Source: Pseudomonas fragi (GTDB lineage: Bacteria; Pseudomonadota; Gammaproteobacteria; Pseudomonadales; Pseudomonadaceae). From it: a DNA stretch of 64,000 nucleotides. The translations under genes and the position numbers were made by a program. The notes below the pieces were generated by a model. That model made no database searches. It was not told where the DNA came from and was given only the letters and a program-made list of their open reading frames with translations. This document shows, piece by piece, positions 29,968-61,206 of this stretch. Location: positions 558,001 through 622,000 of the forward strand of contig NZ_LT629783.1 in the NCBI RefSeq assembly GCF_900105835.1. The letters are read 5' to 3'. Each line of letters starts with the position of its first letter. The stretch's first letter is position 1.

Positions 29968-31199
29968 TGTGCGCTCCTTGTATAGGCGCTAAAGGCCTCG
30001 GTCGATAGTGGTTGTACGCCGCGGCTCTGCCAGCGGTCGGTGTGGGATTTGAAGAAGCCAGAGCAATGTTTGACGCCAGCGCATTGCTGGCAGGTATCGA
30101 TGAACAGGTTCTTCCAGTCCGAAATGCTCTGGCGAGCGAAACGTGAGAGGTGGGCCGGGATCAGGCACAGGGGCAAGTTGTAGATCGAGACCGGTACTCC
30201 GCGGTTGAACAGGAAATACACCGCCTGGCTCAACGACTCCTGATAGTCCAGCGGGTCAATCCACAGTTCTTCGTAGTTCTTCCTGGCCAGGCCGGTACTT
30301 TCGATACCCATCAGCGCAACATGCCGCACGAAGGGCAGATTCCTGAACACGTAGTGGGCGAGCTCTGGCAAGCGTGGCGTGGTCAGGTGATTGAGCACCA
30401 CGCGTATCTCGATAATCTGGTTGGCACGCGCCAGGTTGTAAAGACCTTGCAGGGTTTCGCTGAACGCGCCTGGAGCCTGCACCACATGGTCATGGTCTTC
30501 GGCATTGTCGGCATACAACGGGATGCCCCAACTCAACTGAGGGTGGCCGATGGCCGAGAGCGCTGCGATCCAGCTCGGGTCTTGAAACAGACGCCCGTTG
30601 CTGAGCACATGAATGGATTTCTGCGGCAAAACGGCTTTGCACTTGGCCAGTATTTCGAGCAGGCCGTCACGATAAAGCGTTGGTTCTCCGCCGCTGATTC
30701 CCAGATTTTCCTCGCCCTTGTCCATCAGGTCGATCAGCCGTAGGTTCTCTTCGATGTGCCAACGGTCATCGATATCTTTGGGTGGCTGCGAGCACATCAG
30801 ACAAAGGCTGTTGCAACGATCGGTCATAAACAGCAGGTTGCTGTCTGAGCCTCGTCGATAAAGCACTCGTACCAACGCGTTGCCGGGTGTTATAGCAATG
30901 ACATCACCCGGTTGCACGACATCCACATCTTTGGGGGTGTGCAGGTGTGGAAGCGCGCTGTCGAAGTCGCCGATCAATGGCTCCGGGATCAGGAATCCAC
31001 CCACTGGTAATGAGAGCAGATGCGGGTTCTGTAACCGTTCTTCGTTTGGCAGCCAAAGCAGCAGGTCACCGAACTCAGCGTCTCCGGCACAAACAGCCAG
31101 CCCTTGTTCGATGAACTCATCCAGAGTGATAACCTTGAGAAGTTTCGGCTCATTCAGGTGATGGATTTCGAAGTGTGTATCTTTGCGCAGCATCACCAT
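29964..31199 (-). CDS. hxsC: Radical SAM protein HxsC
   Basis: A 411-residue radical SAM enzyme with the CxxxCxxC cluster motif 'CNSLCLMC' (Cys129, 133, 136) and 'GISGGEPTLYRDGLLEIL', the usual second motif. An extra cysteine set near the C-terminus ('CQQCAGVKHCSGFF') suggests an auxiliary cluster. ATG 31199 shares a base with the hxsB stop (TGATG); ATG 31193 is nearly as good because of AGGGG spacing. Gene order and paired radical SAM proteins identify it as HxsC, predicted to modify the His-Xaa-Ser repeats of HxsA. The longer frame starting at 31253 overlaps hxsB and is not favoured. Confidence 0.9.
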   Translation of the reverse strand: MVMLRKDTHFEIHHLNEPKLLKVITLDEFIEQGLAVCAGDAEFGDLLLWLPNEERLQNPHLLSLPVGGFLIPEPLIGDFDSALPHLHTPKDVDVVQPGDVIAITPGNALVRVLYRRGSDSNLLFMTDRCNSLCLMCSQPPKDIDDRWHIEENLRLIDLMDKGEENLGISGGEPTLYRDGLLEILAKCKAVLPQKSIHVLSNGRLFQDPSWIAALSAIGHPQLSWGIPLYADNAEDHDHVVQAPGAFSETLQGLYNLARANQIIEIRVVLNHLTTPRLPELAHYVFRNLPFVRHVALMGIESTGLARKNYEELWIDPLDYQESLSQAVYFLFNRGVPVSIYNLPLCLIPAHLSRFARQSISDWKNLFIDTCQQCAGVKHCSGFFKSHTDRWQSRGVQPLSTEAFSAYTRSAQ

Positions 31200-32701
31200 C
31201 AGCCCCTGTAACCCGGTAACCGGACATCGTTGTAAGAGCGCCTGTTCAACCAAGACAGCAGTACCCTCTGCACGTTGTCGTCGCCATCGTAAAGCAGGCC
31301 GAAAAGATGCTTCAGCAGCCCCATATTCTTATTGCAGAAGCTGCTGAACTCTCGGTGTCCGATCGGGTCAGCTTGACGGGCATAGTGTTCGACGGGGTCA
31401 GCACCACAGTACGGGACAAGTGCGCAGTCAGCGCAGCCCGGCAGCGCCTCTGCTACGCCACTGGCGAGCAACACATTCATAACGGGTGATGCGAGTAATT
31501 CAGACAAGGGCTGCTGCACGGTGCCGAGCCTCAAGCCGTCTTCTCCCATCTCCAGCAACATTCGGGCTTCGTCCGAGGGGTAGACGTAACCGTCATAGTT
31601 GTAAACCAGCGCCGCGATGCCTGCGCCAGTTGGGGAGCGCAGATCTACGTAACCGGAGGAGAAGGGTGTCAGGATATTTCTCAGCAAGAGGCTCGTATAA
31701 CTCTCTGAGAGGTATACGCCTTGTTGGTTGATGTGTAGCAAATAGGCCAGTGCCTTCTTGTAGAAGGCCAGGTATCGCTCAATCGGGTAATCAAGTCGAT
31801 GGGCACTCTTGGTGGCAAACCCATAAGGGCTCAGAGGCCGAAGCGAGATGCTGGAAAAACCCTGATTTACATATTCATCGATGATTGCTTCAGGTTGTTC
31901 GAGGCTTCTAGAAGTCAGCGTGGTCAGCGCGGAAACCGCATCATGGCCAAGACGCTCACGGACCCACCGGATGCCTTTTACAGTGCGTTCGTAGGAGTCT
32001 CGTGACGGAGTAGGACGGTTGGCATTATGCAAGGGCGCCGGGCCATCGAGCGAGGTCGAAAACTGGATGCGATTTTGCTCAGCGAAATCGAGTATTTCCT
32101 CCGTCAGGTGGTGCAGCGTGGTGGTGATGACGAACTGGATATCCCGTTGTTCGACCACGTTCCGCTCCACGATCCATTCGACAATTTGGCGGACGCGCTC
32201 GAAGGCCAAAAGTGGTTCGCCACCCTGAAACTCCACAGTCAGGGCTGGAGCGTTCGATTCGAACAGGCGATCGACCGCCGCCTGTGCATCCGCTTCCGAC
32301 AGGTCGTGGCCGGATCCTCCCAGAGGGGCCCGCGACACCTGGCAGTACTGGCAGGTGTGGTTGCAGCGCAATGTCACCACGAACAAGTGCAATGCAGGGC
32401 CCTGGAAGAGGAAGTCCTTGCGGCTGCGATACTGCGCGGCCATTTCCGGGAACGGGTCGTGGCGGCCTGGTTCGTAGATGAAGTGGCGAGCTAGCAGGTC
32501 CTTGTAAAAACGCGTACTTGCTTGAACGTCGAAGTAACTGAGGGCTCGTAATTGCGCGTCGTTCACGTGCATGTACTCACCGGTATCGGAGGTGAGCAGA
32601 ATGTCACGGTCATGTCCCGTGTTCATGCGCATGAATCGAAAAGGTAGCAAGCGGTAGTGCTTGGCGTCTGTCGCAATTAGCGTCACTGGGAAATCCCACA
32701 T
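31199..32701 (-). CDS. hxsB: Radical SAM protein HxsB
   Basis: A 500-residue radical SAM/SPASM-type enzyme. The cluster motif is 'CNHTCQYC' (Cys113, 117, 120), followed by 'VEFQGGEPLLAFERV'. C-terminal cysteines in 'CADCALVPYCGADP' and a late 'FSSFCNKNM' fit auxiliary Fe-S clusters, as in maturases of ribosomally made peptides. The N-terminal 100 residues may bind the precursor. It overlaps hxsD by 19 bases, and no clear ribosome-binding site is seen, consistent with coupled translation. Together with HxsC it forms the maturase pair of the His-Xaa-Ser system. Confidence 0.92.
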   Translation of the reverse strand: MWDFPVTLIATDAKHYRLLPFRFMRMNTGHDRDILLTSDTGEYMHVNDAQLRALSYFDVQASTRFYKDLLARHFIYEPGRHDPFPEMAAQYRSRKDFLFQGPALHLFVVTLRCNHTCQYCQVSRAPLGGSGHDLSEADAQAAVDRLFESNAPALTVEFQGGEPLLAFERVRQIVEWIVERNVVEQRDIQFVITTTLHHLTEEILDFAEQNRIQFSTSLDGPAPLHNANRPTPSRDSYERTVKGIRWVRERLGHDAVSALTTLTSRSLEQPEAIIDEYVNQGFSSISLRPLSPYGFATKSAHRLDYPIERYLAFYKKALAYLLHINQQGVYLSESYTSLLLRNILTPFSSGYVDLRSPTGAGIAALVYNYDGYVYPSDEARMLLEMGEDGLRLGTVQQPLSELLASPVMNVLLASGVAEALPGCADCALVPYCGADPVEHYARQADPIGHREFSSFCNKNMGLLKHLFGLLYDGDDNVQRVLLSWLNRRSYNDVRLPGYRG

Positions 32702-32982
32702 CCAGCGAGCGCGGCTCGGGCTAGGACCTCGCGCAACCCTGCTGTTTCGCGGTTGATATGGTCGCGTAGGGCGAAGTCGTTCAGATGCTGAAGGATTAGC
32801 GAGTGAGCCTGCTCCCGGGAAAGGGTTAGCCTTTCTTCAGCGGGGTGGGCCGTGAGGCTTATGTGATTGGCTTCAATACCGACCTGGATCGTGACAGTGC
32901 CAGCCAGGGAATAAGCGGCGCGTTGCACCACGCTGAGCGGGTAGGCAGTGCTGTCGAGTTTCAGCGTGACTGGCCATGTCAT
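32683..32982 (-). CDS. hxsD: His-Xaa-Ser system protein HxsD
   Basis: A 99-residue protein matching the small first member of Hxs loci. 'VTLKLDSTAYPLSVVQRAAYSLAGTVTIQVG' is the recognisable core, with 'LTLSREQAHSLILQHLNDFALRDHINRETAGLREVLARAALAG' forming a helical end. Proposed as a partner or leader-binding protein of the maturases, but its role is not established. ATG 32982 has AAGGA at about nine bases. It heads the hxsDBCA operon on the minus strand. Confidence 0.88.
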   Translation of the reverse strand: MTWPVTLKLDSTAYPLSVVQRAAYSLAGTVTIQVGIEANHISLTAHPAEERLTLSREQAHSLILQHLNDFALRDHINRETAGLREVLARAALAGCGISQ

Positions 32983-33428: not shown

Positions 33429-34634
33429 ATGACCGAAAAAACCGCATCGCCCATTTATGAGGTCAGCGCGCGCATAGATAAATGGCAAGAGGGGCCATAT
33501 GGCTTCTTCGGCTTTGCAAAAGTGCTGTCCGCCGACCCGCCTGCCGCCGAAGCGATTTACTTTGCCAGCGCAGCGAAGGCCCTACCCGAACTAGGTGAAC
33601 CTTTTGATTGCAGCATCAGCGTCGTCAAAGACCGCTGGCGTGTGATTGCGCTGGCATCGGAACGCGAGCCTGTCGAGCAGGAACTGAGTGGGATCGTACT
33701 GAGCTGTTGCGGCAATGGCATGAAGCGCAGTTGGCGTATCGAACTAAATGCGCCAACGGATGAGACCCGTTTTGCAACGCTGACTACCCAAGTATTGAAC
33801 CAAGCAAAGGTTGCGCATTTGGAGCACGGCCAACCGCTCTCATTCATGGCGCTGCTACCGCCCGAAGGGGACTGGAGCGTGACGAAGGTGCTGACGCCGT
33901 TGGCAGCGGAGGCGATCACCGACCACGCTAGCAACTGCGCTATTTTTGCACTCGCATTGACGAATTGGACAACGGACACCGATAAAAAGAGCCTCGCCTT
34001 CGCCGTCAATTCACCGCCCTCGAAGGTTTGGCCGCTTGTATATGTCCCGACCTCACTACTGTTCAAGCAGTCGATCCGCACCATCCATCCGGCTGACGCC
34101 ATTGATGCTTCGGCCATCGCCTCTGCCAAGCCAACGGTGCTGCAGGCAGCGCAGGTATTGCAGTGTGGCTCGGCGCAAGAATTGGCCGGGTTGAGTATCG
34201 ATTGCCTGCAACTGGCCCTGACTTGGGATGCTGCAGGCGCGCGCTGGAACTGCCGTCGCCTGCTTGCACCCTTGAGATTGCGTGATCCGAACCCGGGTGA
34301 GGTGATCGATTGGGTCAGCGCTCGTGTAACCGAGCTTGAAGCTCCCGCCAAAGCCAAGGTCGAGGAAACCGCTGATGTTGCAGAGCCCTGCGGCGATGAC
34401 GAAGCCGACAGCCCTGTGGTGAAAAAAACGCAAGTGTCGATAAAGGTCAGGATGGATATCAATGACCCGCGTGTGGGGCGCGGCAACATTTCAGGTTACT
34501 TCACGACTTCGATCGTGGACGCCGCCGGCCTGGCCGAAGGGGTAACGGTGGTGGTGCGCATCAGCTCAAGTACTCCTCCCTACTGGAACGCAAAACGCCT
34601 GCATCGCTCTACGCCACTTCGAGAGGATCTATGA
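33429..34634 (+). CDS. Island protein A: possible multi-OB-fold protein
   Basis: A 401-residue protein, first gene of a five-gene operon. The N-terminus 'YGFFGFAKVLSADPPAAEAIYFASAAKALPELGEPFDCSISVVKDRWRVIAL' has the look of a cold-shock-type OB fold. A second such segment ('ELSGIVLSCCGNGMKRSWRIELN...') and a C-terminal one ('KVRMDINDPRVGRGNISGYFTTSIVDAAGLAEGVTVVVRI') suggest three or more small beta barrels separated by helical linkers. Residues 325-355 are acidic and probably flexible. This suggests single-stranded nucleic acid binding, in line with the helicase encoded next (four-base overlap, ATGA). No family recognised; function is inference. Confidence 0.75.
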   Translation: MTEKTASPIYEVSARIDKWQEGPYGFFGFAKVLSADPPAAEAIYFASAAKALPELGEPFDCSISVVKDRWRVIALASEREPVEQELSGIVLSCCGNGMKRSWRIELNAPTDETRFATLTTQVLNQAKVAHLEHGQPLSFMALLPPEGDWSVTKVLTPLAAEAITDHASNCAIFALALTNWTTDTDKKSLAFAVNSPPSKVWPLVYVPTSLLFKQSIRTIHPADAIDASAIASAKPTVLQAAQVLQCGSAQELAGLSIDCLQLALTWDAAGARWNCRRLLAPLRLRDPNPGEVIDWVSARVTELEAPAKAKVEETADVAEPCGDDEADSPVVKKTQVSIKVRMDINDPRVGRGNISGYFTTSIVDAAGLAEGVTVVVRISSSTPPYWNAKRLHRSTPLREDL

Positions 34635-37600
34635 AAGCTCGCCAACGGATAAGTGACTTCCTGATCAGCCTGGCGTCGATGATCAATAACGCAAGCATCG
34701 ACGAACCTCCAGCTACGGTAGTGGGCTCACAGCACCCAGCGGCTGCAGCGCCAGAGGCAAAGCCGCGTGCACCAGCACTGCCGCCGCAGAGCGTTGCCGC
34801 GTATTGGCAACGGTCTCTGGATTTCATTAACTTCAAGTCGTACAGCACCGACAAGTCCAAGGACTCTAACGCTGCCGAGCCATTGCTGGTTCTGCCCATC
34901 GCCGAGGTGCCTGACCTGGGAACGCAGGTAGATGAAAACGATCAGTCGCGCACCACCGTCGATGTTAATGTCGTGGTAGTGGTCTGGGAGATGAACGCAC
35001 GCGGGCAGCGCGCGCTTAGGCGCCACCCCTTGTTGTCGGTGCCCGCGGTGCTGGTCGATGGCCAATTTTTTGCTCCCCGTAGCAACGCCGCGCCGATGCT
35101 TAACCCCGATTACCTGGCGCCAGACCAGGCTGCCAGGGGGTTTGCGATTGCCGAACGTGATGTTGCCAACGCACGTATCTACAAGGCCATGGCCGATCTG
35201 GCAGCTGATGACACCCTAAACCTGGACTGGGCCACGTGGTGGTCCGCCTGCCAGGATGTGATGCGCGAACTGCTTGAAGTCGATGAAGATGCTGGCGTTG
35301 AGCGTGAACTGGTGAAACTGGCACGTGAATCACGAGCGGCCAATAGCCGTAATGGCAAACCGGCCGAGTGGTCGCTGCAAGTTGCGGTGTTCGCCAGCCA
35401 GGGCGGTGGCTCGCAGGGTATGCGCGGGGTGTACTCGACCTATCTGGATGCAGCCGAAGCCCCGGTGGTACCGTTGTTCGACTCGTTTTGCGGCACCGAA
35501 GTTGCGCGGCAGACCCACGAGATGCCGGGCACCATCGCCAACCTGATCGTCGGGCATATCGACGAGTACGATGAAAGTAAAAGCAACCGTCCGTTGTTTC
35601 CGCTCGACGAATCGCAGCGCAAGGCGGTATGCGCCGTCGCCAGTCTTCAGGAAGGCGAACTGCAAGCCATCAATGGTCCCCCAGGCAGCGGCAAAACGTC
35701 GATGTTGCGGGCGGTGGTGGCCAGCCGATGGGTCAGCGCCGCGCTACAAAAGGGCGAGTGCCCGATCATCGTTGCCTGCGGTGCAACCAATCAATCGGTC
35801 ACCAACGTCATCGAAGCGTTCGGCAAGGCGCCACACCCTGATGCCAGGCTGGCGCATGCTCAGCGTTGGCTCCCTGACTTACAGAGCTATGGCGCATACC
35901 TCCCTTCCCAGAGTGTCCTAAACGACAAGAAGAAGCAGGCCGAGCTGGCACGCTTCGTCTGCCTGATCCCTGGCCACGGCACTGGTATGCTGTGGCAGTA
36001 CCGCAACCGCCCTAACGTGCTGGACCCACGCAAGGCGCTGGAATTCGAGGAGCAATACCTGCAGCGCGCGCGTGAGGTGCTGGGTAATGATCGCCTGAGC
36101 CGTTTGGAAGATGCAGTGGCGGCGGTCTGGGAAAGGCTGGCGGGCAATGAACAGGCAGGCCAGGCGTTCCTTGACGCAGTGAGTGCGCGCAGCGCGCGCT
36201 GGTTGCCTTTGATCGAAGCCGCAAAACCAGCTGATCCGACGGTATGGCCGGCTAAGCGACACGAGGTGGTTAGCGGCCTTATCGGTCAACTGCATGCCGA
36301 CCTCGACGATGTCGAGGCCGCTCAAGGGCTGATGGATCTGACCTTCCGTAGCGATGCGTTCCATTGGGCGGCCCGCTATTGGGAAGGGCGTTTTCTGCTA
36401 GCCCAGCGCGAGCGCTTATTGTCGCAGCACCCGTTGAACGTCGAAGCCGCTTTGCGGCGCCTTTGCATGCTCACACCGTGCCTGGTGTCGACACTGCATA
36501 GCGTGGCGTCATTGTGCAAAGTGCAGCCCCCCAGCGATGGTGACCCCAACGTGATGCACCGCTTATCTCTGATCGATCTGCTGGTGATCGACGAAGCTGG
36601 GCAGGCCTCTCCAGAGCTGGCTGGCGCGGCCCTTTTGCTGGCCAAGTGCGCGGCCGTAGTGGGGGACTTGAAGCAACTGTCGCCAATCTGGAACCACAAC
36701 AACCTGAGCGAAATTGCGGTGGCGGCCAGTGTTGAAGCGAGCGGCCTCATCAGCGGGTTGAAACAGTCGCGACGCTCGGTAGCCGACGGCAGCATCCTTG
36801 CCGCCGCGCGGCTGGTGTCGAAATGGCGCGAAGCCAATGACTTGGGCATTACCCTGCGCTACCACTACAGGTGCAAGCCAAGCATCATCGGCTACTGCAA
36901 TGAGTTGAGTTACGCAAAGACATTGGTCCCTCGCACGACGGAAGGCGTTGCCTTGCTGGAGCCCGCCATGGCCTGGGTGGCGATCGAGAGTTTGCCGGGG
37001 CGTTCGGGCGGTTCGTTGAGCAATCCGCAGGAAGTCGAGCACATCACCAGCTGGATAGGCGAACGCTGGCCGATATGGCAGGCAGACGCTGAAACCCGTG
37101 GCAAACGATTGCAGGACATCGTAGCGCTGATCACGGCCTACCGTGCTCAGGCTGACCTGCTGCGCAAGGGGCTGGAAAAGGTATTCGAACGGCTGCGCGC
37201 CACGGCCGGTATCCAGTGGCCTACCGTCGATGACATCGAGAAGGTCACGGTCGGAACGGTTCATCAACTGCAAGGCGCGGAACGCCCGATCGTATGCTTC
37301 AGCGTGGTGGAAGGCCCGGAAGACGCCAGTGGCAGTTTCATGGATCGCGATGCGGCGCTGCTCAATGTAGCGGTTTCGCGGGCGAAATCATCATTCATCG
37401 TTTTTGCTCACCCGCAGCGGCTGTTTGCCGAAGGTGGCTCACAGGAAAGCAACACCCCTCTGGCACCGATCCATTTTCTCGGTGCGTATCTGCGCAGAAC
37501 CACTCAAGCCCGCCTGTTGTATCCACGGCGCATGGTGATCATTGAGGCCGGAGGCAAACAACGTACGCTGGCGAACATGTTGGGCAAGACCTGTGCCGTG

Positions 37601-39313
37601 TTGACTACCGGCGGTGCGCTGCAAGGCCTTTCGCTCGACGGTGGGGTCGACATTGGCGCCGGCCTGGTGCCGTTGCCGCATCCCGAGGAGCGTGCACCGG
37701 CCTTCCTGGCAGAGGCCTTCAAGCTTCTGGCGGCGGTGGAGGATGTCATCATCGCAACCGACGACGACCGCATGGGCGAGTTGATTGCCTGGCAGGTCCA
37801 GCGTCTGTTGAGGGATGGCAGCGGCGATAAACCCGTTGCCCGTGTGCGCCTGGGTGCGATCAATGGCCCGGCGGTGCGTGGCGCCTTTGCCGCGCCAGGC
37901 CAATTGGACGAGGGCAAGGTGCTGGCGGAGGCGGTGCGCGAAACGATCGACTGCTTGGTGACGCAACGTTTCGCCCAGGCCACCGTGCTCAAGGCCAGCG
38001 TGGACATGGGCGAATTCCAGGCCCTGGTGGACTGTGGCGCGTGCTTGATCCCTGGCCAGTCCACCAGCCGCGTGCGCCGTGTTGGTCGGGTGCAGGCTGC
38101 GGTGTTGAGATTGCTGCTTGACCGTGCCAGGGAAAGCGCTCAGCACCAGGCCAGCAGTCGCATACGCGCCACGTTGGTAGTAGAGGGCGTCGAACTGCAC
38201 GGTTATGTGCTGAATTTTGACGAGCAACGCGAACTGACCAAGACCCACGACGTGGCTCGCATCATTGAGAAGATCAAGCCTTACTGTTTGAAGGTAACGC
38301 AACAGCCGGAAGTCATCCGCGAGCGAATCAGCGTGCCCCATGCAGGCACTTTTTCCGTGCTGGCCGAGGCGTGGCGACGCTTCCGGCATCTGCCTTGGGA
38401 CAGTATGATGGCGTTACAGGCGCTTTATGACGGCTCATGGTCATCCAGCACTGAGGCAGCGGATGGCTTCGAGCCCGAGCAGCCGATCGTCGTTTCGAAT
38501 GAGCAAGCGGGCCATCCGCCAATCATGCCGCTGGACCGCGCTGCGTCGCCGCAGGTGCTTAGCGCGGTGCTGCACGATCCGGTCTGCCGCGACATCTATA
38601 CCATTATCTGGGAGCGTTTCCTCTTCGCTGAAAGCGCACAGGATACCGCACCGATCATGACCGACATACGGGTCGACTACCGTTTCGATGGGCTGGAAAG
38701 GTCGGCACTCGGTGTGCGCTTTGAGGGCGTGGGCTGCACCTCGCTCACTCAGGAGCAACTGGTTTTGTTGCTTGAGGGCGGCGCGCCGGGCAATGACGCC
38801 GAACATCTGTTGACTTATTACCCTGACCTTACAGGCCTGCAAGCGACTTTGCAGGCCGAGTCTGCCGGCTTGTGGCGCATGTCGCTCGACCGCTTATTGC
38901 TGGAGATGGAGCGTGCGCAAATCGGTCGCCCGTCGACCTGCTCGGCGTCTTTGCAGGGCTTGATCGAAAAGAAACTGATCGAACTTCCGATCGACAGTGG
39001 CCAAGTCCGTTTGACCGAGATGGGAGTCAAGACCGCACTTGCGCTAGAAATGATGGAAAACGCGCTGTCGGCACCTGGGTTCTCCGCCGGGCTGGCCCAG
39101 CGGCTGGTGGCCATCGAAAAAGGCGATGAGGGGCCGCAGGAAGTGTTGGGCGATCTGCTGGGCTTGTTGATCCCCGATTGCGCGGATGAAGCGGCGTTGC
39201 GCAGCAAGATCTGGAACTCCCTTGACGCCCTGCAATCGGCCCAGGACCGCCACCCCGTGCAGGTGCGAGGCACGGGCATCATCAGTGCTCCGACAGCAAG
39301 GGGCTGGGCATGA
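34631..39313 (+). CDS. Island protein B: UPF1-like SF1 helicase fused to Tyr-less topoisomerase IA-like region
   Basis: A 1560-residue fusion. The SF1 helicase part has Walker A 'GPPGSGKT' (349-356), DEAGQ (654-658), 'GDLKQLSP' (678-685), 'VGTVHQLQGAE' (874-884) and 'LLNVAVSRAK' (910-919), all typical of UPF1/DNA2-like enzymes. From 968 a type IA topoisomerase pattern begins: TOPRIM Glu972 ('VIIEAGGK'), 'ATDDDRMGE' (1042-1050), GRVQ (1152-1155) and 'IGRPST' (1431-1436). Where topoisomerases have LYE-x-G-xx-(T/S)-Y-x-R-T, this protein reads 'LYDGSWSSSTEAAD', so the catalytic tyrosine position (about 1273) is serine. DNA cleavage by this chain alone is therefore not expected. Both ends overlap the neighbouring genes by four bases. 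Confidence 0.85.
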   Translation: MKARQRISDFLISLASMINNASIDEPPATVVGSQHPAAAAPEAKPRAPALPPQSVAAYWQRSLDFINFKSYSTDKSKDSNAAEPLLVLPIAEVPDLGTQVDENDQSRTTVDVNVVVVVWEMNARGQRALRRHPLLSVPAVLVDGQFFAPRSNAAPMLNPDYLAPDQAARGFAIAERDVANARIYKAMADLAADDTLNLDWATWWSACQDVMRELLEVDEDAGVERELVKLARESRAANSRNGKPAEWSLQVAVFASQGGGSQGMRGVYSTYLDAAEAPVVPLFDSFCGTEVARQTHEMPGTIANLIVGHIDEYDESKSNRPLFPLDESQRKAVCAVASLQEGELQAINGPPGSGKTSMLRAVVASRWVSAALQKGECPIIVACGATNQSVTNVIEAFGKAPHPDARLAHAQRWLPDLQSYGAYLPSQSVLNDKKKQAELARFVCLIPGHGTGMLWQYRNRPNVLDPRKALEFEEQYLQRAREVLGNDRLSRLEDAVAAVWERLAGNEQAGQAFLDAVSARSARWLPLIEAAKPADPTVWPAKRHEVVSGLIGQLHADLDDVEAAQGLMDLTFRSDAFHWAARYWEGRFLLAQRERLLSQHPLNVEAALRRLCMLTPCLVSTLHSVASLCKVQPPSDGDPNVMHRLSLIDLLVIDEAGQASPELAGAALLLAKCAAVVGDLKQLSPIWNHNNLSEIAVAASVEASGLISGLKQSRRSVADGSILAAARLVSKWREANDLGITLRYHYRCKPSIIGYCNELSYAKTLVPRTTEGVALLEPAMAWVAIESLPGRSGGSLSNPQEVEHITSWIGERWPIWQADAETRGKRLQDIVALITAYRAQADLLRKGLEKVFERLRATAGIQWPTVDDIEKVTVGTVHQLQGAERPIVCFSVVEGPEDASGSFMDRDAALLNVAVSRAKSSFIVFAHPQRLFAEGGSQESNTPLAPIHFLGAYLRRTTQARLLYPRRMVIIEAGGKQRTLANMLGKTCAVLTTGGALQGLSLDGGVDIGAGLVPLPHPEERAPAFLAEAFKLLAAVEDVIIATDDDRMGELIAWQVQRLLRDGSGDKPVARVRLGAINGPAVRGAFAAPGQLDEGKVLAEAVRETIDCLVTQRFAQATVLKASVDMGEFQALVDCGACLIPGQSTSRVRRVGRVQAAVLRLLLDRARESAQHQASSRIRATLVVEGVELHGYVLNFDEQRELTKTHDVARIIEKIKPYCLKVTQQPEVIRERISVPHAGTFSVLAEAWRRFRHLPWDSMMALQALYDGSWSSSTEAADGFEPEQPIVVSNEQAGHPPIMPLDRAASPQVLSAVLHDPVCRDIYTIIWERFLFAESAQDTAPIMTDIRVDYRFDGLERSALGVRFEGVGCTSLTQEQLVLLLEGGAPGNDAEHLLTYYPDLTGLQATLQAESAGLWRMSLDRLLLEMERAQIGRPSTCSASLQGLIEKKLIELPIDSGQVRLTEMGVKTALALEMMENALSAPGFSAGLAQRLVAIEKGDEGPQEVLGDLLGLLIPDCADEAALRSKIWNSLDALQSAQDRHPVQVRGTGIISAPTARGWA

Positions 39314-40263
39314 GTGGTGGTGTTACCTCATACCCACGTACGGGCGGCGGCGGCGGTTCTACCGTGCAGCAGATCAACCAACTGATTGCGCGGTTGACTG
39401 CGGCGCTGGGTACGCAATCGCTGCAGGTACAGGGCGACCAACTGATCGTCCTGCTGCAGCAGTTCGCCCTATCCGCAGCCACGGCGCAAAGCATCGTGAC
39501 CCTCGCTCGGCGGGTGCGCGACGCATTGTTCATTGCCCGCTGCAATGGCAACTTGCCGGTTGCCAGGCATCTGGAGGCGATGGTGATCTGCGCGGACGCA
39601 TGGCGCACGGTATTTCCGCTAGCTGCCACCGCGCTGGGACCTCGTGCCGCCAAGGCCGAATTGGACCTCGCACAGCACAAGGCTAATGGTGGAAATACCC
39701 AGCAGTTGCGGGCGATCAAGGAAGAAATGGGCGTGATCGCCTGGCAATACGAAGCCTCTGCATTGCTAGGTGAAGATTTGTCGGCGGGGGTTGCGGGCCA
39801 GGCCACTCAATTGGGTACCAGCAAATACATCGGTGCGCGTGACGCTAAAAACCGGCTGACATACCTGGAGTGTGCGGGACCCTACAACGTCAATGTGCTG
39901 CTGTGCATCCACGTACCGAGCGCAGGCAAGCCGCTGGTCCTCGTGGGCGAGGCTAAGGGGGGCAAGAGTGCGTACGGTAACGTCGAAAGGACGCCGGCTT
40001 TCGTCAACTCAACCGGGCTTACTGGAGGGCGCATCAGCCAAACGGACCTGCTTTACGCGCCCTCTCGGGCGCTGTACATGGTCAACGCCTGCGCGGCAGG
40101 TGCCACGTCGGCCGGTCAGCCGGAACTTGAGGCGCGTCGGGACGCGGGGAACATCATTCTGCAAGCATACAATGCACTAACCTTGTGTTATATGACGGCC
40201 CGTGGTGATGCTGCGATCGGGTCGCCGGTCTCTGCTAAAAGGGGATATCTCGAATGCCAATGA
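39310..40263 (+). CDS. Island protein C: SYPRT-headed protein with PD-(D/E)XK-like EAK motif
   Basis: A 317-residue protein. The N-terminal tail 'GGVTSYPRTGGGGGS' (Tyr8) carries the exact (T/S)-Y-P-R-T active-site motif of type IA topoisomerases on a glycine-rich, flexible segment, and lies directly after the Tyr-less topoisomerase-like protein B. A helical middle part (20-160) follows. The C-terminal domain has 'YNVNVLLCIHVPSAGKPLVLVGEAKGGKSAYG' and 'ISQTDLLYAPSRALYMVN', a pattern close to restriction-endonuclease-fold toxins (Glu-x-Lys in GEAKGG, then a Q-T-x-x-Y/L helix). So a nuclease is likely. Start and stop overlap neighbours (4 and 10 bases). Confidence 0.72.
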   Translation: MSGGVTSYPRTGGGGGSTVQQINQLIARLTAALGTQSLQVQGDQLIVLLQQFALSAATAQSIVTLARRVRDALFIARCNGNLPVARHLEAMVICADAWRTVFPLAATALGPRAAKAELDLAQHKANGGNTQQLRAIKEEMGVIAWQYEASALLGEDLSAGVAGQATQLGTSKYIGARDAKNRLTYLECAGPYNVNVLLCIHVPSAGKPLVLVGEAKGGKSAYGNVERTPAFVNSTGLTGGRISQTDLLYAPSRALYMVNACAAGATSAGQPELEARRDAGNIILQAYNALTLCYMTARGDAAIGSPVSAKRGYLECQ

Positions 40264-41042
40264 CCAGCGAGCAGTTGGAATTGCTGCGCAACTTAGCCAA
40301 AGCCACGCAGTTGCGTTATCTCGACGCTGTCGAGCAATGGGAGCGGAACTGGCGCATTGCGCGTGGCAGCAACAAAGTCATGCCAGTGCTGGCTGGCCGT
40401 ATGGGCCTGGTCGACTACATGGCGGCGGCTCAGATATTAGATGACCAACCCGCCTATGAAGCAGCGGCCACAACAATTTTAAGCCATGCCAGTGAACTGG
40501 CCAGCCTGTTCAAACCCCTGCCCGAAGTGCTGCTGGTCGAACTGTCGCTGGCCATCATTTGCAAACAACGCAGTGCCCGGCGCGCGGTGGCCAAAGCTGT
40601 CAGCGCAGCCAAGCTCGACGACAACGCAGTGCTGTATGAACGCTCCCAGGCGTTGATGCTGGCGGCGTTGGTCGATCTCGATCATGACCTGGCGCGCAAG
40701 CTTGCTGGACAGCTACTTCAGGCATGCGCTGCACGCCAGTTTGACAAGGCGACGACCGAGCAGGCCGAACAGTGGGCGGTTGCCACCAGCAAATTGGCGG
40801 ACCGTGACCTTGAAGGTTGTGCTACCGCACTCGCGGCATTGCAGGCGCTGCACTTCAAACGCATTGAACGCGAGTTGAGCCGCCTGAAACGTGGCGCGTC
40901 TTCGGCGCTGATGGCATGCGACCTGGTGGACTTGCCTGGGAATGCCCTGAGGGTGCTGTTGAGTGAGTCAGGTTACAACGCGCAGCAGGTTGGTGCCGCC
41001 CAGGTATGGGAGATGCCAAGCACCTCGACGGTGGTTGTCTGA
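40254..41042 (+). CDS. Island protein D: helical protein, unknown
   Basis: A 262-residue, almost fully helical protein. Repeating alanine/leucine-rich helices ('AKLDDNAVLYERSQALMLAALVDLDHDLARKLAGQLLQACAARQF', 'LADRDLEGCATALAALQALHFKRIERELSRLKRGASSAL') suggest a TPR- or HEAT-like scaffold. No catalytic motif, signal peptide or membrane helix is visible. Translation is coupled to its neighbours: it starts 10 bases before the end of protein C and its stop shares a base with the ATG of protein E. I do not recognise the family. A structural or adaptor role in the five-protein system is a guess. Confidence 0.7.
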   Translation: MPMTSEQLELLRNLAKATQLRYLDAVEQWERNWRIARGSNKVMPVLAGRMGLVDYMAAAQILDDQPAYEAAATTILSHASELASLFKPLPEVLLVELSLAIICKQRSARRAVAKAVSAAKLDDNAVLYERSQALMLAALVDLDHDLARKLAGQLLQACAARQFDKATTEQAEQWAVATSKLADRDLEGCATALAALQALHFKRIERELSRLKRGASSALMACDLVDLPGNALRVLLSESGYNAQQVGAAQVWEMPSTSTVVV

Positions 41043-41404
41043 TGGGCGTGATCTTCGAGTTCTACGCAATACCGGCGGACTTGGTGCCGGACCCGCTGTC
41101 CGGGGAAGCCTATGAAGTGGACGGACACCTCAATTTCCTGAAAAGTTTTTCCGTCAACTCGCACTCGATCGCCGAACTGTTCGACGCACTGACTGGCACC
41201 GACTTGGCGGGGTTGATAGGCGATGGCAGCGATATGAGCCGTAGGGTTAGAGTACCTCGCACTAAATTTACGGGGTTGCTTGCCCAGACCGCGGCTTGGG
41301 CTGTCTCGGCTTCTCAGTTGCTGCTTGATGCACAAATCGCTGTTGAAGATGCTGTCGAGGAAGCGGAGTTTCTACAGAAGGATCTGTGGGTTGTGGTTAT
41401 GTAA
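41042..41404 (+). CDS. Island protein E: small unknown protein, last gene of operon
   Basis: A 120-residue acidic protein starting at ATG 41042, which shares one base with the preceding stop (TGATG). 'GVIFEFYAIPADLVPDPLSGEAYEVDGHLNFLKSFSVNSHSIAELFDALTGTDLAGLIGDG' gives a short beta strand plus helices. The end 'LQKDLWVVVM' is hydrophobic. The layout resembles small immunity- or DUF1877-type proteins, but I cannot assign it. It could be an inhibitor or immunity protein for the nuclease-like protein C (speculation). A terminator follows its stop by 33 bases. Confidence 0.65.
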   Translation: MGVIFEFYAIPADLVPDPLSGEAYEVDGHLNFLKSFSVNSHSIAELFDALTGTDLAGLIGDGSDMSRRVRVPRTKFTGLLAQTAAWAVSASQLLLDAQIAVEDAVEEAEFLQKDLWVVVM

Positions 41405-42369: not shown

Positions 42370-43476
42370 GTGAATTTGATTCGAATCGACAAGCCCGTAA
42401 CCTTTCTACTGCCCTTTGATCGGTACAGCCTGACGCTTTCGCACCGCTTGCTGGACAGCATGGGGGGCGTATCGCGTTTTTTGCTGAGGGCCATCGAACA
42501 GGAGCTTTCGCTCGCCGCGTTGATCGAGGTCACGGCGTTGAGCGAGGCAGTGCTGCTCAACCAGTTGGCGTACCTGCAGGCTCACCATTATCTGCAGGTA
42601 GAAGAGGGCGATGATGGCCTGCTTTTGTGGCTGACACCGCGAGGCGCTTCCATCGTGCAGGTGGAGCGCTTGCTTGAGGACTCGCGCCTCAGTATCTGGA
42701 TGGATGCCTTCACCCTCTCTCGCCATGCGGTGCACATGGTGATGTTCGACGACTGCGCGACATTACCACCTCCCATGCCAGCAGATGATGCACCCTCGGC
42801 CGTTGTCGTCAATGTGCCTCGCCGAACAGGGCGGGCAGGGCGACCTCGGCTCTTCGATGATGCCAACCGCCTGAGGGGGCTGCTTGAGCAGAGCGGGCTG
42901 AAACAACTCCTCGAACATTGCTGGGGAGCCGATTGCGAATTGATCGCCAGTGAGTTCGAACACTGGGAGTTCGAACTTGGTAAAGACGAGGGTGAGCAAG
43001 CTGAGTTGCAGGTGCCCGTCGAGTATGCTGCGGGGGAACTGCTGCTGCGCTTGAAGACATCCAGCAATCAATGCAAACCAGACGCGTTGCCACTGCTGAC
43101 CTTACCGGTGATCGAGCTTACACACTCCTTTAAGCGGGTTGCGCATTTCCCATGGCCAGTAGACCTGCCGCCTACGTGTGTTCAGCGGCTTGAGTTGGTC
43201 AGCTCCGGCACCTTGACCCGGTTCGCGGAAAACGAAGTGGCCGAGGCCGAGGATGCCAGGCATTCCAAACTACCCATGTGCCCTGAAACAACCGTCCCAG
43301 CAGCGCTTGGCACGGTGACCGTGCCGTCAGGCATCTCCATGCAAGCCAGCACCAGAACTCTGCGGCTTTTGTGTTCCATGGATGAGGTGCAATTTAGCCG
43401 TCATCTGCAGTGCACCCCTGACGCATTGATCCTGTCCCATAACCTCATGACGACAGAAACGGCGGAACTAGCATGA
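42370..43476 (+). CDS. Island protein F: possible winged-helix protein, unknown
   Basis: A 368-residue protein starting at GTG 42370. The N-terminal 100 residues ('FLLRAIEQELSLAALIEVTALSEAVLLNQLAYLQAHHYLQVEEGDDGLLLWLTPRGASIV') read like a winged helix-turn-helix that senses or binds DNA. The remaining 260 residues have mixed alpha/beta content and no known motif. The ribosome-binding site AAGGAT (42348) sits better for an out-of-frame ATG at 42363, so either the start is unusual or a small leader or frameshift is present. It overlaps protein G by four bases. Function unknown; it may be a recognition or regulatory subunit. Confidence 0.65.
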   Translation: MNLIRIDKPVTFLLPFDRYSLTLSHRLLDSMGGVSRFLLRAIEQELSLAALIEVTALSEAVLLNQLAYLQAHHYLQVEEGDDGLLLWLTPRGASIVQVERLLEDSRLSIWMDAFTLSRHAVHMVMFDDCATLPPPMPADDAPSAVVVNVPRRTGRAGRPRLFDDANRLRGLLEQSGLKQLLEHCWGADCELIASEFEHWEFELGKDEGEQAELQVPVEYAAGELLLRLKTSSNQCKPDALPLLTLPVIELTHSFKRVAHFPWPVDLPPTCVQRLELVSSGTLTRFAENEVAEAEDARHSKLPMCPETTVPAALGTVTVPSGISMQASTRTLRLLCSMDEVQFSRHLQCTPDALILSHNLMTTETAELA

Positions 43477-44015
43477 TCACTGTCAACGTATTCGCGACCT
43501 TGTTCGACTGGGACGATAAAACCACGGAGCGGGTCAAGCGAGCCAGTGGCGTGACACGCACCCTGTATACGATGGCTCGCACGGGAAAAGCAGCCGCCAG
43601 CCCGCTGATTTTCGTCGAGGCGGGGCTGGCATTTCTGGATGCCTTGGGCGCTTATGCAGATTATCGCCAGGCTAAAAGTAAAACACAGGCGCTGGAGGCC
43701 GAAGGTGAAGCACTACGCCGTGAACTCAAGGAACTCGAGAAGCAATTCCGGATACAGGCCAAGACGCGAGACTTGAAGTTCATTGCGCAGATGGACGCGT
43801 TGCGCAATCAACTGGAGGAACGTGACGTGAAACTGAGCATCGGGGTTGCGAACCTGGAGAAACTGGGCAGGCATATCAAGCGGCTGGGTGATTATGTGAC
43901 CCAGCAGCGGTTGGAGTTGGCGCCCAGTTGCGTGCCCTTGTTGAAATTGGAGCGCACCTATTATCAGTTGGTTGACGCACAGCTCAGTGCAGCACTCACG
44001 CTTGTAGACGAGTAA
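43473..44015 (+). CDS. Island protein G: coiled-coil protein
   Basis: A 180-residue protein. A short hydrophobic stretch at residues 40-62 ('AAASPLIFVEAGLAFLDALGAYADY') may be a membrane-associated or amphipathic helix. A long coiled coil follows ('KSKTQALEAEGEALRRELKELEKQFRIQAKTRDLKFIAQMDALRNQLEERDVKLSIGVANLEKLGRHIKRL', about 66-140). The ATG overlaps the stop of F. With H and the membrane-anchored helicase I it probably forms a complex at the inner membrane (inference). No family recognised. Confidence 0.7.
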   Translation: MITVNVFATLFDWDDKTTERVKRASGVTRTLYTMARTGKAAASPLIFVEAGLAFLDALGAYADYRQAKSKTQALEAEGEALRRELKELEKQFRIQAKTRDLKFIAQMDALRNQLEERDVKLSIGVANLEKLGRHIKRLGDYVTQQRLELAPSCVPLLKLERTYYQLVDAQLSAALTLVDE

Positions 44016-44025
44016 GGAGCCCACT

Positions 44026-44466
44026 ATGAAAAAGGCAAAGCCGCAAAAGACTGCATCCGACGAGAAGGCAGGCGACAGCGAGAAGGTCACCTTGAAAAAG
44101 CTCGACCACGCCGCGGGTATCGTCAAAGCCGCTCTTACCACGGGCGGCAAGCTTGCCGATTGGGGTAAGCAAGCCACAGCGAGCAAAGCCTCGATTGAAG
44201 GCAGCAGGGCGCGCGTGCGCGCCGCCGAGGAGAAGACCCAGCAGGTGGCATGGAACGCTACGCAAAAGATGCATGAAACCGAGCGCCTGCGGCAGAAGGA
44301 TTCCAATGAGCACACCCAGGCAATGGCCAAACTGCAGATGGAGCATGAGCAGATGGTGACCCTCGACCAGGAGCGGGGGCGTGTCCTCGATAAGATGCTG
44401 GAGGAGCCCACTAGCCTTGACCAACTGACGCACAGCTACCGCGCGCTCATTCCACCCAAGCCCTGA
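44026..44466 (+). CDS. Island protein H: charged coiled-coil protein
   Basis: A 146-residue hydrophilic protein with AAGGAG upstream of ATG 44026. The N-terminus is basic ('KKAKPQKTASDEKAGDSEK'). Residues 55-125 form a highly charged single helix or coiled coil ('RARVRAAEEKTQQVAWNATQKMHETERLRQKDSNEHTQAMAKLQMEHEQMV'). It ends with 'LTHSYRALIPPKP'. It lacks enzymatic motifs. Neighbouring coiled-coil protein G suggests the two interact. Ten bases separate it from G and twelve from I, so all are co-transcribed. Confidence 0.7.
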   Translation: MKKAKPQKTASDEKAGDSEKVTLKKLDHAAGIVKAALTTGGKLADWGKQATASKASIEGSRARVRAAEEKTQQVAWNATQKMHETERLRQKDSNEHTQAMAKLQMEHEQMVTLDQERGRVLDKMLEEPTSLDQLTHSYRALIPPKP

Positions 44467-44478
44467 GACGGACGTCCT

Positions 44479-47400
44479 ATGTATCAATACGTTGCCGCCG
44501 GCCTGTTCGTACTAGGTGCAACGGCTGTCGCCTGGCTCCTGGATCGCGAAACCGATGAAGAGCGCGAGTTGCATGAGGAATTGGAACGGCGTAACGCCCG
44601 GGCTCGCAGTGACTATCAGGCAGCCAGCAAGGCGGACGCCAGGGAGCAGGCGCGCGCGTATGAAAGGGCCGCGCTTGGGTTGAAGGCAGAGTATCAAGAG
44701 TACTGCTTCAAGTTCCGATCCCGGCTCCAGGGCCCCGCCAAAGAGTTCGACGCGCTGGCGCAACGGTTGGCCAACGACTTGGCAGATGTGTCGATCAGCC
44801 CCTACAGGCGTAACGCATTACGCCTGCTGAGCGGTCGTCTGCAAGACACGCAAAATCGCCTGGCTGGCTTTTTCGCGTACTGCGAGTGGTACTTGCACAC
44901 CTTGGAAAAACTCGCCCAGCGGCAACAGTTCAGTGACCTGATGAGCATGGCGCAGCCGCAGTCCCGGCTGCCTGACGACTGGTTCTACAGCGGTAAGGTG
45001 GTCTTGGCATCAGTCGCGGAAATAGATCATGCCTTCAACGCCTATCGCCAGAGGCTTGAATTGCGTGCGGAGAAACAAGCTGACGTTTGGACCGACACGC
45101 AACAGCGCTCGCTGATGATGCAGTATCCCGATCAGAACGCTGTGCCGGTGCAGATGATAGGCAACGCAAAACGGCCGGACTTCTTCAAAGCCTGTGTGTT
45201 TCGTGGCGCCTTGCACGCCGAACACATACTTGAAAACGTGCCGTGCACAGCCTTCATAGAAAAAGCGCGAGTATCGCCACAGCATGGCGACGGTTACACC
45301 GTGCGATGTTTTCCAAGCTTCTGTTCCGTCGACAAACAGCAGGCCGCGAACGCCGGTATCGTCGCATTCCTGCCGCGCAGTGAGTCGAGCTTCCCCGGCA
45401 AGATTTACCCCCGTGGCGAGCGTATTGAGGTTTACGTTCATTACTATGATCTGCTGTTGAGCAAGGACCAGGTGACTGTGACACAGCACCCAGAGTCACT
45501 TCGTTACGGCGAACAGAGTACGGCGCCGGTGTTCATCCACGTGGACACTGCCGTACACGACCTCGAAGGTCTGGAGCGTGAGAGCGTCGGCGTGCAGTGG
45601 CAGCTACGGAGTACGGTTGAAGTCGATGGCGTGCTGATCGTCTCTCTGCAACTTGGCGCGTGGCAGGTCGAGGCCAAGGTCAGCGCCAAGCACGCTCAGC
45701 TAGAGATCTTGAGCGTGACACGCACCGGTTTCGACAGCGTTGAGCTGGATACTTTGCCTTGCCCGGTGCGGTTGATCGACTTGAAACTTAAGGACAGCGT
45801 CTTCTGTGATGCCTTGCAGTTCGAAGCTTTTATGACTTTTTGCCGTCAGCAGTCGCTGTTCGCTGGTGATGGCCTAGCACGCAAGTGGGCTGGGCAGTTC
45901 TTTGAGCGGTGGAATGCGGTAACTGATTACCTGCTGGCTGAAACTGGGCATGTCGTTTTCAGTTTGAGTGACGTTACCGAGCTGGATGAGCGGAGCCTAG
46001 AATGCTCCTGCAACTTGAGTCTGGACGACGGCCTAATGAAGCTGATCGAAAAGGCACGGAATACGCCACGGTTGTTCATAGAGGAGCTGTTCCTGAGTGC
46101 CAATGGCGAACAGCGCTGGTTGCAGGTTGCCGAGTTGCACGGGGTGCCAGAGGCCGTTGCTTCAAAGCGTTATGAAATCGAGCATAAAGGCCTGAAGCGG
46201 CCGGCCCCCAATAGCGGATACCTCGGCCTGCAGCCGTCTCAGCACCGAATCCGGTTCCCTAACCGGGGTGAGCTGGCAAATCTGGGAAGGCAAAAGGTCG
46301 CACACCAGGGGTTCTTGGGGGGGCGCCTGGTAAACCGGGAGCTGCAGCAGATCCTGCTGATGCCGGACCGGTACGCTCCGAAACCCGATCCCTTCTGGAG
46401 TGAACGGGTCGCTGATGGCTTGAAGTGGCGAGACCCCAATTGGCAGGAACCTGGCAAAGCGATGGCCGCCAAGCAGGTTATCGAGGCAGCCCTCATCGAG
46501 TCCAATTTGTACTTGGTCCAGGGCCCCCCAGGTACAGGCAAGACCACCTGCATCGTCGAATTGTTGCACCAGTTGTTTTTCGCAAAGCCAGACTCCAAGA
46601 TCCTGGTAGTTTCACAGCAGAACACAGCGGTGGATAACGCCCTGGATCGTTTCCTGGAGCAGTTTCCGGGCTTCAGTTCCAATGTGCTGCGCATAGGTAA
46701 CGACGTTGACAAGGTTCAAGTCGAAGTACAGCCGCGCATGACCGAGAACGTGCTGATGGAGTACCTACGTGCGCGCCAGCAGGACTACAGCCTGGCCAGT
46801 CTCGAAAACCCCGTAAAAGCCGATTGGATCGAAGCCTGGATGGATAGCATCTACCATCCCTCCGACCAGGGACGATCACAGTTCGATGACGAACTGGCTG
46901 AACTCGTTGTCCAAGATCACGGTTTGATCGGCGCCACCTGCGTGGGGCTATCATCACGGCGTTACGGCATGGATCGGCTCGCGTTCGACATCTGCATCGT
47001 GGACGAAGGGGGGAGGGCAACGGTTCCCGAACTGCTGATTCCGCTGATGCGCAGCCGTAAGGCAATCATTATCGGCGATCACTTCCAGCTTCCTCCGAGC
47101 ATCGGCCGTGCCTTGCTGGAAGCCGACGCAAAGACGGCGTTGCCGTTTCTCGAAGAGACATTCCTCAAAACCAGCTTTTTCGAGCAGCTGTATGAAAACC
47201 TGCCAGCGGCGTGCTTCGGCAGGCTTGTGGAACAGTTCCGCATGGTCGAGCCAATCGGGGATCTGGTGGCTGATCTGTTCTACACCACAGATAACGTGAG
47301 GGGGTTGCACAATGGAAAGGTGCATAAGCGCGAGCATTTCCTCGACCGGGAACACTGCCTCCGCTGGGTGGATGTTCCTCATGGCAAGGAAGGAAACGAG

Positions 47401-55187: not shown

Positions 55188-55238
55188 GTGGCCATTGATT
55201 AATCAGCGCTGATTTTCACATTTAATTTGGTGAATGCA

Positions 55239-61196: not shown

Positions 61197-61206
61197 TGGT
61201 CCTCAG

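What the first reader, a model, noticed from the sequence alone, without database searches (positions are those of the whole stretch)
39310..39360. The missing SYPRT active-site motif sits at the N-terminus of the next protein
Protein C begins with Met-Ser-Gly-Gly-Val-Thr-Ser-Tyr8-Pro-Arg-Thr followed by a glycine run. (T/S)-Y-P-R-T is the signature around the catalytic tyrosine of type IA topoisomerases, exactly what protein B lacks, and the two genes overlap by four bases. One reading is a split topoisomerase in which the flexible tail of C delivers the tyrosine in trans to the TOPRIM site of B, perhaps to attach C or its nuclease covalently to DNA. Chance is possible, since the motif is short.
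Basis: partly seen in the sequence, partly recalled or inferred. Interest (0 to 1): 0.88.

Follow-up and report, generated by a model that had tools for sequence, protein, structure and literature searches.

The report
Effector carries topoisomerase's missing catalytic tyrosine
In this rare bacterial operon a helicase-topoisomerase lacks the strand that carries its DNA-cutting tyrosine, and the next gene, which in related loci encodes unrelated, sometimes toxin-like proteins, starts with just that strand, so the partner likely completes the active site and would become tied to the DNA that is cut.

Summary
All 40 B proteins examined lack the YxR strand of type IA topoisomerases but keep the other named cleavage residues (E972, D1044, D1046, H1295). 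All 41 C proteins with an intact N-terminus carry Y-x-R in their first dozen residues, although C as a whole diverges to about 35% identity. B and C overlap by four bases in the four loci read; their distances correlate (Mantel r 0.98, 15 pairs). The arm of C is predicted disordered; the B core is predicted to fold as a type IA topoisomerase around the gap.

Decisive: two more distant loci have the topoisomerase split in two at the missing strand. Between the halves lies an effector gene with no detectable likeness to C beyond the arm (MSGVSSYPRT, MNGLVSYPRT). One effector is an HNH protein resembling the tail of a Bacillus LXG polymorphic toxin; both are followed by a YrhA-family (SUKH-type) protein. 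The tyrosine strand is thus a portable N-terminal tag on exchangeable effectors.

Best reading: the effector supplies Tyr and Arg in trans to the TOPRIM core and would become 5'-phosphotyrosyl-linked to the cut strand. Chemistry and biological role are untested.

The parts
34631..39313 (+). Protein B, 1560 aa: SF1 (UPF1-like) helicase fused to a type IA topoisomerase core without the catalytic tyrosine strand
35603..37411 (+). Helicase part of B (residues 325-927)
   Evidence: Pfam AAA_11 325-399 and AAA_12 737-927
37535..37813 (+). TOPRIM of B (residues 969-1061): E972, K976, D1044, D1046, E1050 kept; the position of E. coli TopI E115 (number recalled) is M1048
   Evidence: invariant in 40 of 40 rows; compared with 43 TopA-type proteins
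38423..38515 (+). LYDG...GH stretch of B (residues 1265-1295) where the tyrosine strand of TopA is missing; H1295 of the His365 motif is kept
   Evidence: low model confidence around piece residues 321-350
39310..40263 (+). Protein C, 317 aa, effector with the N-terminal tyrosine arm
39310..39357 (+). Arm of C: MSGGVTSYPRTGGGGG, with Tyr8 and Arg10 and a glycine linker
   Evidence: pLDDT under 50 for residues 1-15
39310..39313 (+). Four-base overlap of the B stop and the C start
   Evidence: same in L002, L003, L004 and in the same slot of L014 and L019
39829..40257 (+). Alpha/beta domain of C with invariant E187, Y192, N193, N195, E214-x-K216 (nuclease-like by motif only)
33429..34634 (+). 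Gene A, 401 aa, conserved upstream member of the operon, function unknown
   Evidence: present in the same place in L002, L003, L004
40254..41042 (+). Gene D, 262 aa, overlaps C by 10 bases in 4 of 4 loci; candidate partner or immunity protein of C (inferred)
   Evidence: no likeness to the small proteins or C-halves of the two other loci
41006..41404 (+). Gene E, 132 aa, last conserved gene of the operon; other candidate immunity protein (inferred)

Best explanation
Protein B, a helicase fused to a type IA topoisomerase core, lacks the strand with the catalytic tyrosine, and protein C, encoded by the overlapping next gene, begins with that strand; C likely slots it into B's active site, so that Tyr8 of C would cut the DNA strand and C would become joined to its 5' end. 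Shown by sequence: the strand is absent from B and present on C across the family; the remaining named cleavage residues stay in B; the same arm heads two other effectors, each encoded between the two halves of a split version of the same topoisomerase. [quoted passage not shown] Inferred: the arm docks at the TOPRIM/domain 3 interface of B; the helicase presents single-stranded DNA; Tyr8 attacks with Arg10 and the TOPRIM acids assisting, which makes C the covalently attached subunit. Also inferred: because the tagged partner is exchangeable and in two loci resembles toxin proteins, with a small protein in the immunity slot, the purpose is to load that effector on selected (probably invading) DNA rather than to relax supercoils. 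The following gene or genes (D or E here, YrhA in Polaromonas) would guard the host's own DNA.
Against: No complex was modelled and no activity measured. The motif in the window's C alone is not significant by PSSM, by shuffles or against other open frames. B is a diverged core: of 131 columns with one residue in at least 95% of 43 TopA, only 41 keep it in at least 90% of 40 B, and the third TOPRIM acid is Met in 40 of 40. Polaromonas has also changed GRVQ to TRPQ and DREGE to DDDGE, so members may be impaired or specialised. B has its own non-canonical invariant tyrosine, Y964, before the TOPRIM. The nuclease nature of C rests on a motif read by eye, without a family or fold match. The toxin link concerns the other two effectors, not C; for L019 it is weak (tblastn 2e-3 over 82 residues), and the Polaromonas HNH match in Pfam is below its cutoff.
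Confidence: 0.74

Rival explanations
1. Ordinary two-subunit topoisomerase: the arm of C completes the active site, the strand is cut and always resealed, and the body of C only regulates or anchors the enzyme, as in naturally split reverse gyrases.
For: Topoisomerase core kept in B; split reverse gyrases and a split Topo III exist in archaea (passages).
Against: Only a short strand is moved, not a half of the enzyme, and it is fused to exchangeable effectors, two of them toxin-like and one followed by an immunity-type protein, which a housekeeping topoisomerase would not need.
Confidence: 0.14
2. Docking tag without chemistry: the arm plugs the vacant tyrosine pocket of B to assemble the complex or hold the effector inactive, and no phosphotyrosine forms.
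For: The arm is short, terminal and disordered alone, like a docking peptide; many TopA-conserved columns have changed in B.
Against: Docking would be expected to tolerate Phe for Tyr or Lys for Arg, yet Y and R are invariant in 41 of 41; E, K, D, D and H of the cleavage site in B are also invariant.
Confidence: 0.08
3. B cleaves with its own tyrosine Y964 (the LYP motif just before the TOPRIM), or works as a tyrosine-free TOPRIM nuclease; the arm has another role.
For: L963-Y964-P965 is invariant in 40 of 40 B proteins; TOPRIM domains of OLD-family nucleases act in defence systems (passages of PMC10952713).
Against: No conserved Arg follows Y964 closely. It leaves the coincidence of arm, gap and three partner families unexplained.
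Confidence: 0.03
4. Chance resemblance of a short motif.
For: PSSM of the window sequence alone is unremarkable.
Against: Invariance in 41 of 41, the matching gap in 40 of 40, and the same arm on two other partners in the same slot.
Confidence: 0.01

Closest known systems
Bacterial type IA topoisomerase I (TopA)
   Same: B core: TOPRIM, domain layout and the named cleavage residues other than Tyr and Arg; the arm of C matches the YxRT strand
   Different: Catalytic Tyr and Arg are on another protein; the third TOPRIM acid is Met; 90 of 131 TopA-conserved columns are not kept in B; an SF1 helicase is fused in front
Naturally split reverse gyrases (Methanopyrus kandleri, Nanoarchaeum equitans) and N. 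equitans Topo III
   Same: Type IA enzymes made of two polypeptides (passages in PMC8185306, PMC6878951, PMC4200833 and a table in PMC10969213). That the small M. kandleri subunit carries the covalent link is recalled, not read
   Different: There the enzyme is cut into large parts; here only a strand of about ten residues is moved, onto a protein that is not recognisably a piece of a topoisomerase. Reverse gyrase uses an SF2 helicase (recalled), B an SF1 helicase
Mokosh type II anti-phage system (MkoC)
   Same: Helicase of B is homologous to MkoC (4e-160)
   Different: PLD nuclease end (PMC10952713 table passage; seen in three plasmid relatives) is absent from B; a topoisomerase core and partner genes stand instead
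Polymorphic toxin systems (LXG, T6SS effectors) with SUKH immunity
   Same: Polaromonas effector and YrhA protein match a B. subtilis LXG toxin tail and its neighbour
   Different: No secretion or trafficking module found; the N-terminus is the topoisomerase tyrosine arm. PMC3482391 shows no occurrence of topoisomerase or toprim in the first 300,000 of its 357,715 characters
DNA gyrase (GyrA tyrosine, GyrB TOPRIM)
   Same: Tyrosine and TOPRIM on separate polypeptides (recalled; TOPRIM in the B subunit of type IIA, passage)
   Different: Type II enzyme; the tyrosine sits in a folded winged-helix domain, not on a disordered tag of exchangeable effectors

Membership tests
Type IA topoisomerase (B alone) | TOPRIM Glu and DxD | tested here: met
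   E972, D1044, D1046 in 40 of 40
Type IA topoisomerase (B alone) | Type IA core fold | tested here: met
Type IA topoisomerase (B alone) | Catalytic Tyr followed by x-Arg in domain 3 of the same chain | tested here: not met
   0 of 40 B, 43 of 43 TopA; the strand is on C
Type IA topoisomerase (B alone) | Third TOPRIM acid (E115 of E. coli TopI, recalled) | tested here: not met
   Met in 40 of 40; Glu in L019 and P0078
Type IA topoisomerase (B plus C) | 5'-phosphotyrosyl intermediate, strand passage | not testable with these tools
   needs biochemistry
Mokosh type II | MkoC-type SF1 helicase | tested here: met
   PADLOC MkoC 4e-160; also P0078, P0127 and L019
Mokosh type II | C-terminal PLD nuclease | tested here: not met
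   Pfam scan of B shows Toprim and Topoisom_bac and no PLD family at E 0.5; three plasmid relatives do match PLDc_2
Reverse gyrase | SF2 helicase fused to a type IA core with its own Tyr (recalled) | tested here: not met
   SF1 AAA_11/AAA_12 and no Tyr; rgy model 43.4 bits, cutoff 471.7
Polymorphic toxin (Polaromonas effector P0128) | Toxin domain shared with known polymorphic toxins | tested here: met
   tblastn 3e-13 to a protein annotated LXG polymorphic toxin, 36% over its tail
Polymorphic toxin (Polaromonas effector P0128) | Adjacent immunity-type protein | tested here: met
   YrhA family NF038335, 61.1 bits against cutoff 55; same annotation beside the LXG toxin; immunity itself not tested
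Polymorphic toxin (Polaromonas effector P0128) | N-terminal secretion or trafficking domain | tested here: not met
   N-terminus is the SYPRT arm; no trafficking family in Pfam or NCBIfam
Polymorphic toxin (protein C) | Known toxin domain | tested here: inconclusive
   No PADLOC, PHROG, NCBIfam or PDB-sequence match and no Pfam match at E 0.5

The most novel reading that the evidence does not exclude
A type IA topoisomerase has been turned into a machine that conjugates toxins to DNA: its catalytic tyrosine strand was cut out and made into a portable N-terminal tag on exchangeable toxin-like effectors, so that each cleavage fastens an effector covalently to the 5' end of DNA chosen by a Mokosh-type helicase.
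Probability: 0.5. Interest if true: 0.97.

Novelty: categorically new. Interest (0 to 1): 0.93.

Why it matters
If true, an enzyme family found in nearly all cells has an active site that can be completed by a detachable peptide tag, and bacteria use this to fasten effectors to DNA. That would be a new way of arming DNA against invaders, a new trafficking mode for polymorphic-toxin domains, and a natural ten-residue tag for covalent protein-DNA conjugation. It is directly testable with two proteins and an oligonucleotide. It also gives a simple search rule (Tyr-less TOPRIM helicase, then an overlapping gene whose N-terminus holds YxR) that may uncover further effectors.

Tried and rejected
Rejected: chance motif; nucleotide-level constraint from the overlap, because only four bases overlap and motif codons vary synonymously; a misread start of C, because the start and overlap recur in L002-L004. 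The neighbouring genes F-I were not counted in: of A-I, only A-E have orthologues in L002-L004; the hits of I there are the helicase part of B (L003 is a short contig).

Led nowhere: C in plasmids and viral contigs, B core in plasmids at E 1e-30 and in phages at 1e-10: no match. Fold searches with the C model found no clear relative; this does not show a new fold. The genome search samples found only the seed genome: 1 of 194 and 1 of 398 with C, 1 of 369, 1 of 65 and 1 of 398 with the B core, 1 of 249 with P0078. At the strict limits (E 1e-40 or below) distant split forms would be missed; (E 1e-12, Polaromonas N-half end) found one, in 1 of 299. The genome collection scan gave 3 loci. A pattern scan of viral contigs for the arm gave 3 stretches, none of which reads as the arm in frame. 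P0127 in viral contigs: none; its TOPRIM part in phages: three records, one annotated topA, two unannotated. L019 C-half in plasmids: none. L019 N-half end in plasmids: 48 records, 30 listed; the only split locus seen in the list was Polaromonas again, and most annotated rows are topA. Plasmid controls L020-L022: helicases with a PLD-like end (PLDc_2; two of three below the Pfam cutoff); no gene overlaps them in the annotation tables, and all starts of open frames of at least 60 aa were scanned for the arm. One [ST]YxRT start turned up, a 67-aa antisense frame in L020, not in the slot. Literature searches listed no paper that by title or abstract start describes a trans tyrosine arm or a toxin-topoisomerase system; one search listed none at all. 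Papers: passages of PMC10969213, PMC8185306, PMC7587558, PMC6878951, PMC4200833, PMC10952713 and PMC3482391, and section 6 of PMC7587558; the rest were seen as listings.

Rows dropped: P0126 (no N-terminus) and P0005 (near-copy of the window's C with a different tail) were left out of A4, and P0001, the window's own cluster, was replaced by the window. The tree used 23 of 40 B and 14 of 43 TopA; one search aligned 12 of 43 TopA, all 43. Of the 15 B-C pairs, 11 were paired only by identical longest-contig length, an inference. Weak points found: 3 of 40 B have a YxR[ST] at residues 960-969, at the start of the topoisomerase part, and one B has LYPRTD near residue 142.
Full report
Observation. 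B (1560 aa) has an SF1 helicase followed by a TOPRIM and a type IA topoisomerase domain, and its helicase matches Mokosh type II MkoC. C starts in the last four bases of B and reads MSGGVTSYPRTGGGGG.

Is the arm of C real? C has 42 hits in the two searches, own cluster included, down to about 35% identity. YxR is in the first 20 residues of 41; the exception, P0126, begins downstream of the arm. In the 41-row alignment Y8 and R10 are invariant, T11 is present in 40, and the residue between Y and R is P, A, I or H. The arm is far better conserved than the 64 residues after it, yet AlphaFold2 leaves residues 1-15 disordered in an otherwise confident model (pLDDT 90.1). A conserved but disordered terminus suggests that it works on a partner. 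PMC7587558 (section 6) names Tyr, the Arg two residues later, the TOPRIM Glu and DxD, and His365 in the cleavage reaction: here Tyr and Arg are in C, the others in B. Against the claim: for the window's C alone a TopA PSSM is not significant (389 of 6,800 shuffles as good; best of 204 other open frames up to 12.9 bits against 9.5), so the case rests on the family.

Do they belong together? In L002, L003 (Pseudomonas) and L004 (Burkholderia catarinensis) the same five genes follow in the same order, B and C overlap by four bases, C and D by ten. Motif codons change synonymously. For 15 B-C pairs, 11 of them inferred from equal contig length, distances correlate with r 0.98.

The decisive comparison. 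P0078 ends just before the strand (LERLYLAGDEAR); whether this is its true end is not known. Its best plasmid hit is Polaromonas sp. JS666 plasmid 2. There a helicase-TOPRIM protein ends 22 residues after LYLG; a gene overlapping it by four bases encodes a protein annotated as HNH endonuclease that starts MSGVSSYPRT; then come a YrhA-family protein (SUKH type; NCBIfam 61.1 bits, above its cutoff; Pfam SMI1_KNR4 7.8e-05, below its cutoff) and a protein starting MTMHAHPMLTPL that aligns with the C-terminal half of the topoisomerase although Pfam does not recognise it. Alignment puts the breaks at the two edges of the missing strand. BLASTP between the effectors (E up to 1) finds 10 arm residues between C and the HNH protein, 26 N-terminal residues between the HNH protein and the L019 effector, and nothing between C and the L019 effector; phmmer without the arm gives no significant score. 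The split and fused forms lie together, apart from TopA (long branches, midpoint root).

Controls. Three plasmid helicases related to P0127 end in a PLD-like domain instead of the TOPRIM, and no arm gene follows them. In L002, L003, L004, L014 and L019 the only starts with [ST]YxRT within 14 residues belong to the gene after the helicase.

What the effectors are. The Polaromonas effector matches the tail of a B. subtilis LXG polymorphic toxin (tblastn 3e-13; 36% over 137 residues), and that toxin too is followed by a YrhA-family protein. Part of the L019 effector (residues 177-258) weakly resembles a protein encoded next to a T6SS Vgr gene in Paraburkholderia (2e-3). C has an alpha/beta domain with invariant E187, N195 and E214-x-K216, which looks nuclease-like, but nothing matched it. 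D and E showed no likeness to the small proteins or C-halves of the two other loci, as expected if they belong to C rather than to the core; that one of them is an immunity protein is inferred.

Mechanism. The best reading is a type IA active site assembled in trans. If Tyr8 is the nucleophile, the effector is by chemistry the subunit joined to the 5' end. Whether the joint is resealed is open. Exchangeable bodies, toxin-like in two loci, and an immunity-slot neighbour favour loading of an effector on DNA over relaxation of supercoils; the MkoC-type helicase and the neighbouring GmrSD-type restriction genes favour a defence role. These last steps are inferred.

Known relatives. Split type IA enzymes exist in Methanopyrus and Nanoarchaeum (passages), and gyrase separates Tyr and TOPRIM (partly recalled), so catalysis in trans is not new as such. 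A strand of about ten residues used as a portable tag on other effectors was not found in print in the searches made (open-licence papers only, mostly seen as listings).

Noticed in passing
29359-32982 (-): His-Xaa-Ser cassette HxsA, HxsC, HxsB, HxsD directly upstream on the other strand (NCBIfam equivalogs above cutoff).
   Followed up: no
42370-47925: Second helicase system: an MkoA-like 1148-aa helicase (PADLOC 1.6e-112) preceded by three smaller genes, the first weakly like MkoB.
   Followed up: no
48014-51450: Pair of GmrSD-type restriction genes, then more possible defence genes (ResIII/DEAD helicase 55227-58178, RES domain 61084-62535): probably a defence island.
   Followed up: no
37520-37522 (B residue Y964): Invariant LYP motif with a non-canonical tyrosine just before the TOPRIM in 40 of 40 B proteins; role unknown.
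   Followed up: partly
37772-37774 (B residue M1048): The third TOPRIM acid is Met in all 40 fused B proteins but Glu in L019 and P0078: the fused lineage may have altered religation (inference).
   Followed up: no
L004:16799-19477 (-): 892-aa protein like mads_3/mads_8 and ATPase-Toprim defence proteins near the Burkholderia operon.
   Followed up: no
L021:431-3629: DRT3 antiviral reverse transcriptase genes beside a PLD-ended helicase on a Vibrio plasmid.
   Followed up: no
L023:3960-5498: Paraburkholderia protein next to a Vgr gene shares a stretch with the L019 effector: a possible uncharacterised toxin domain.
   Followed up: partly
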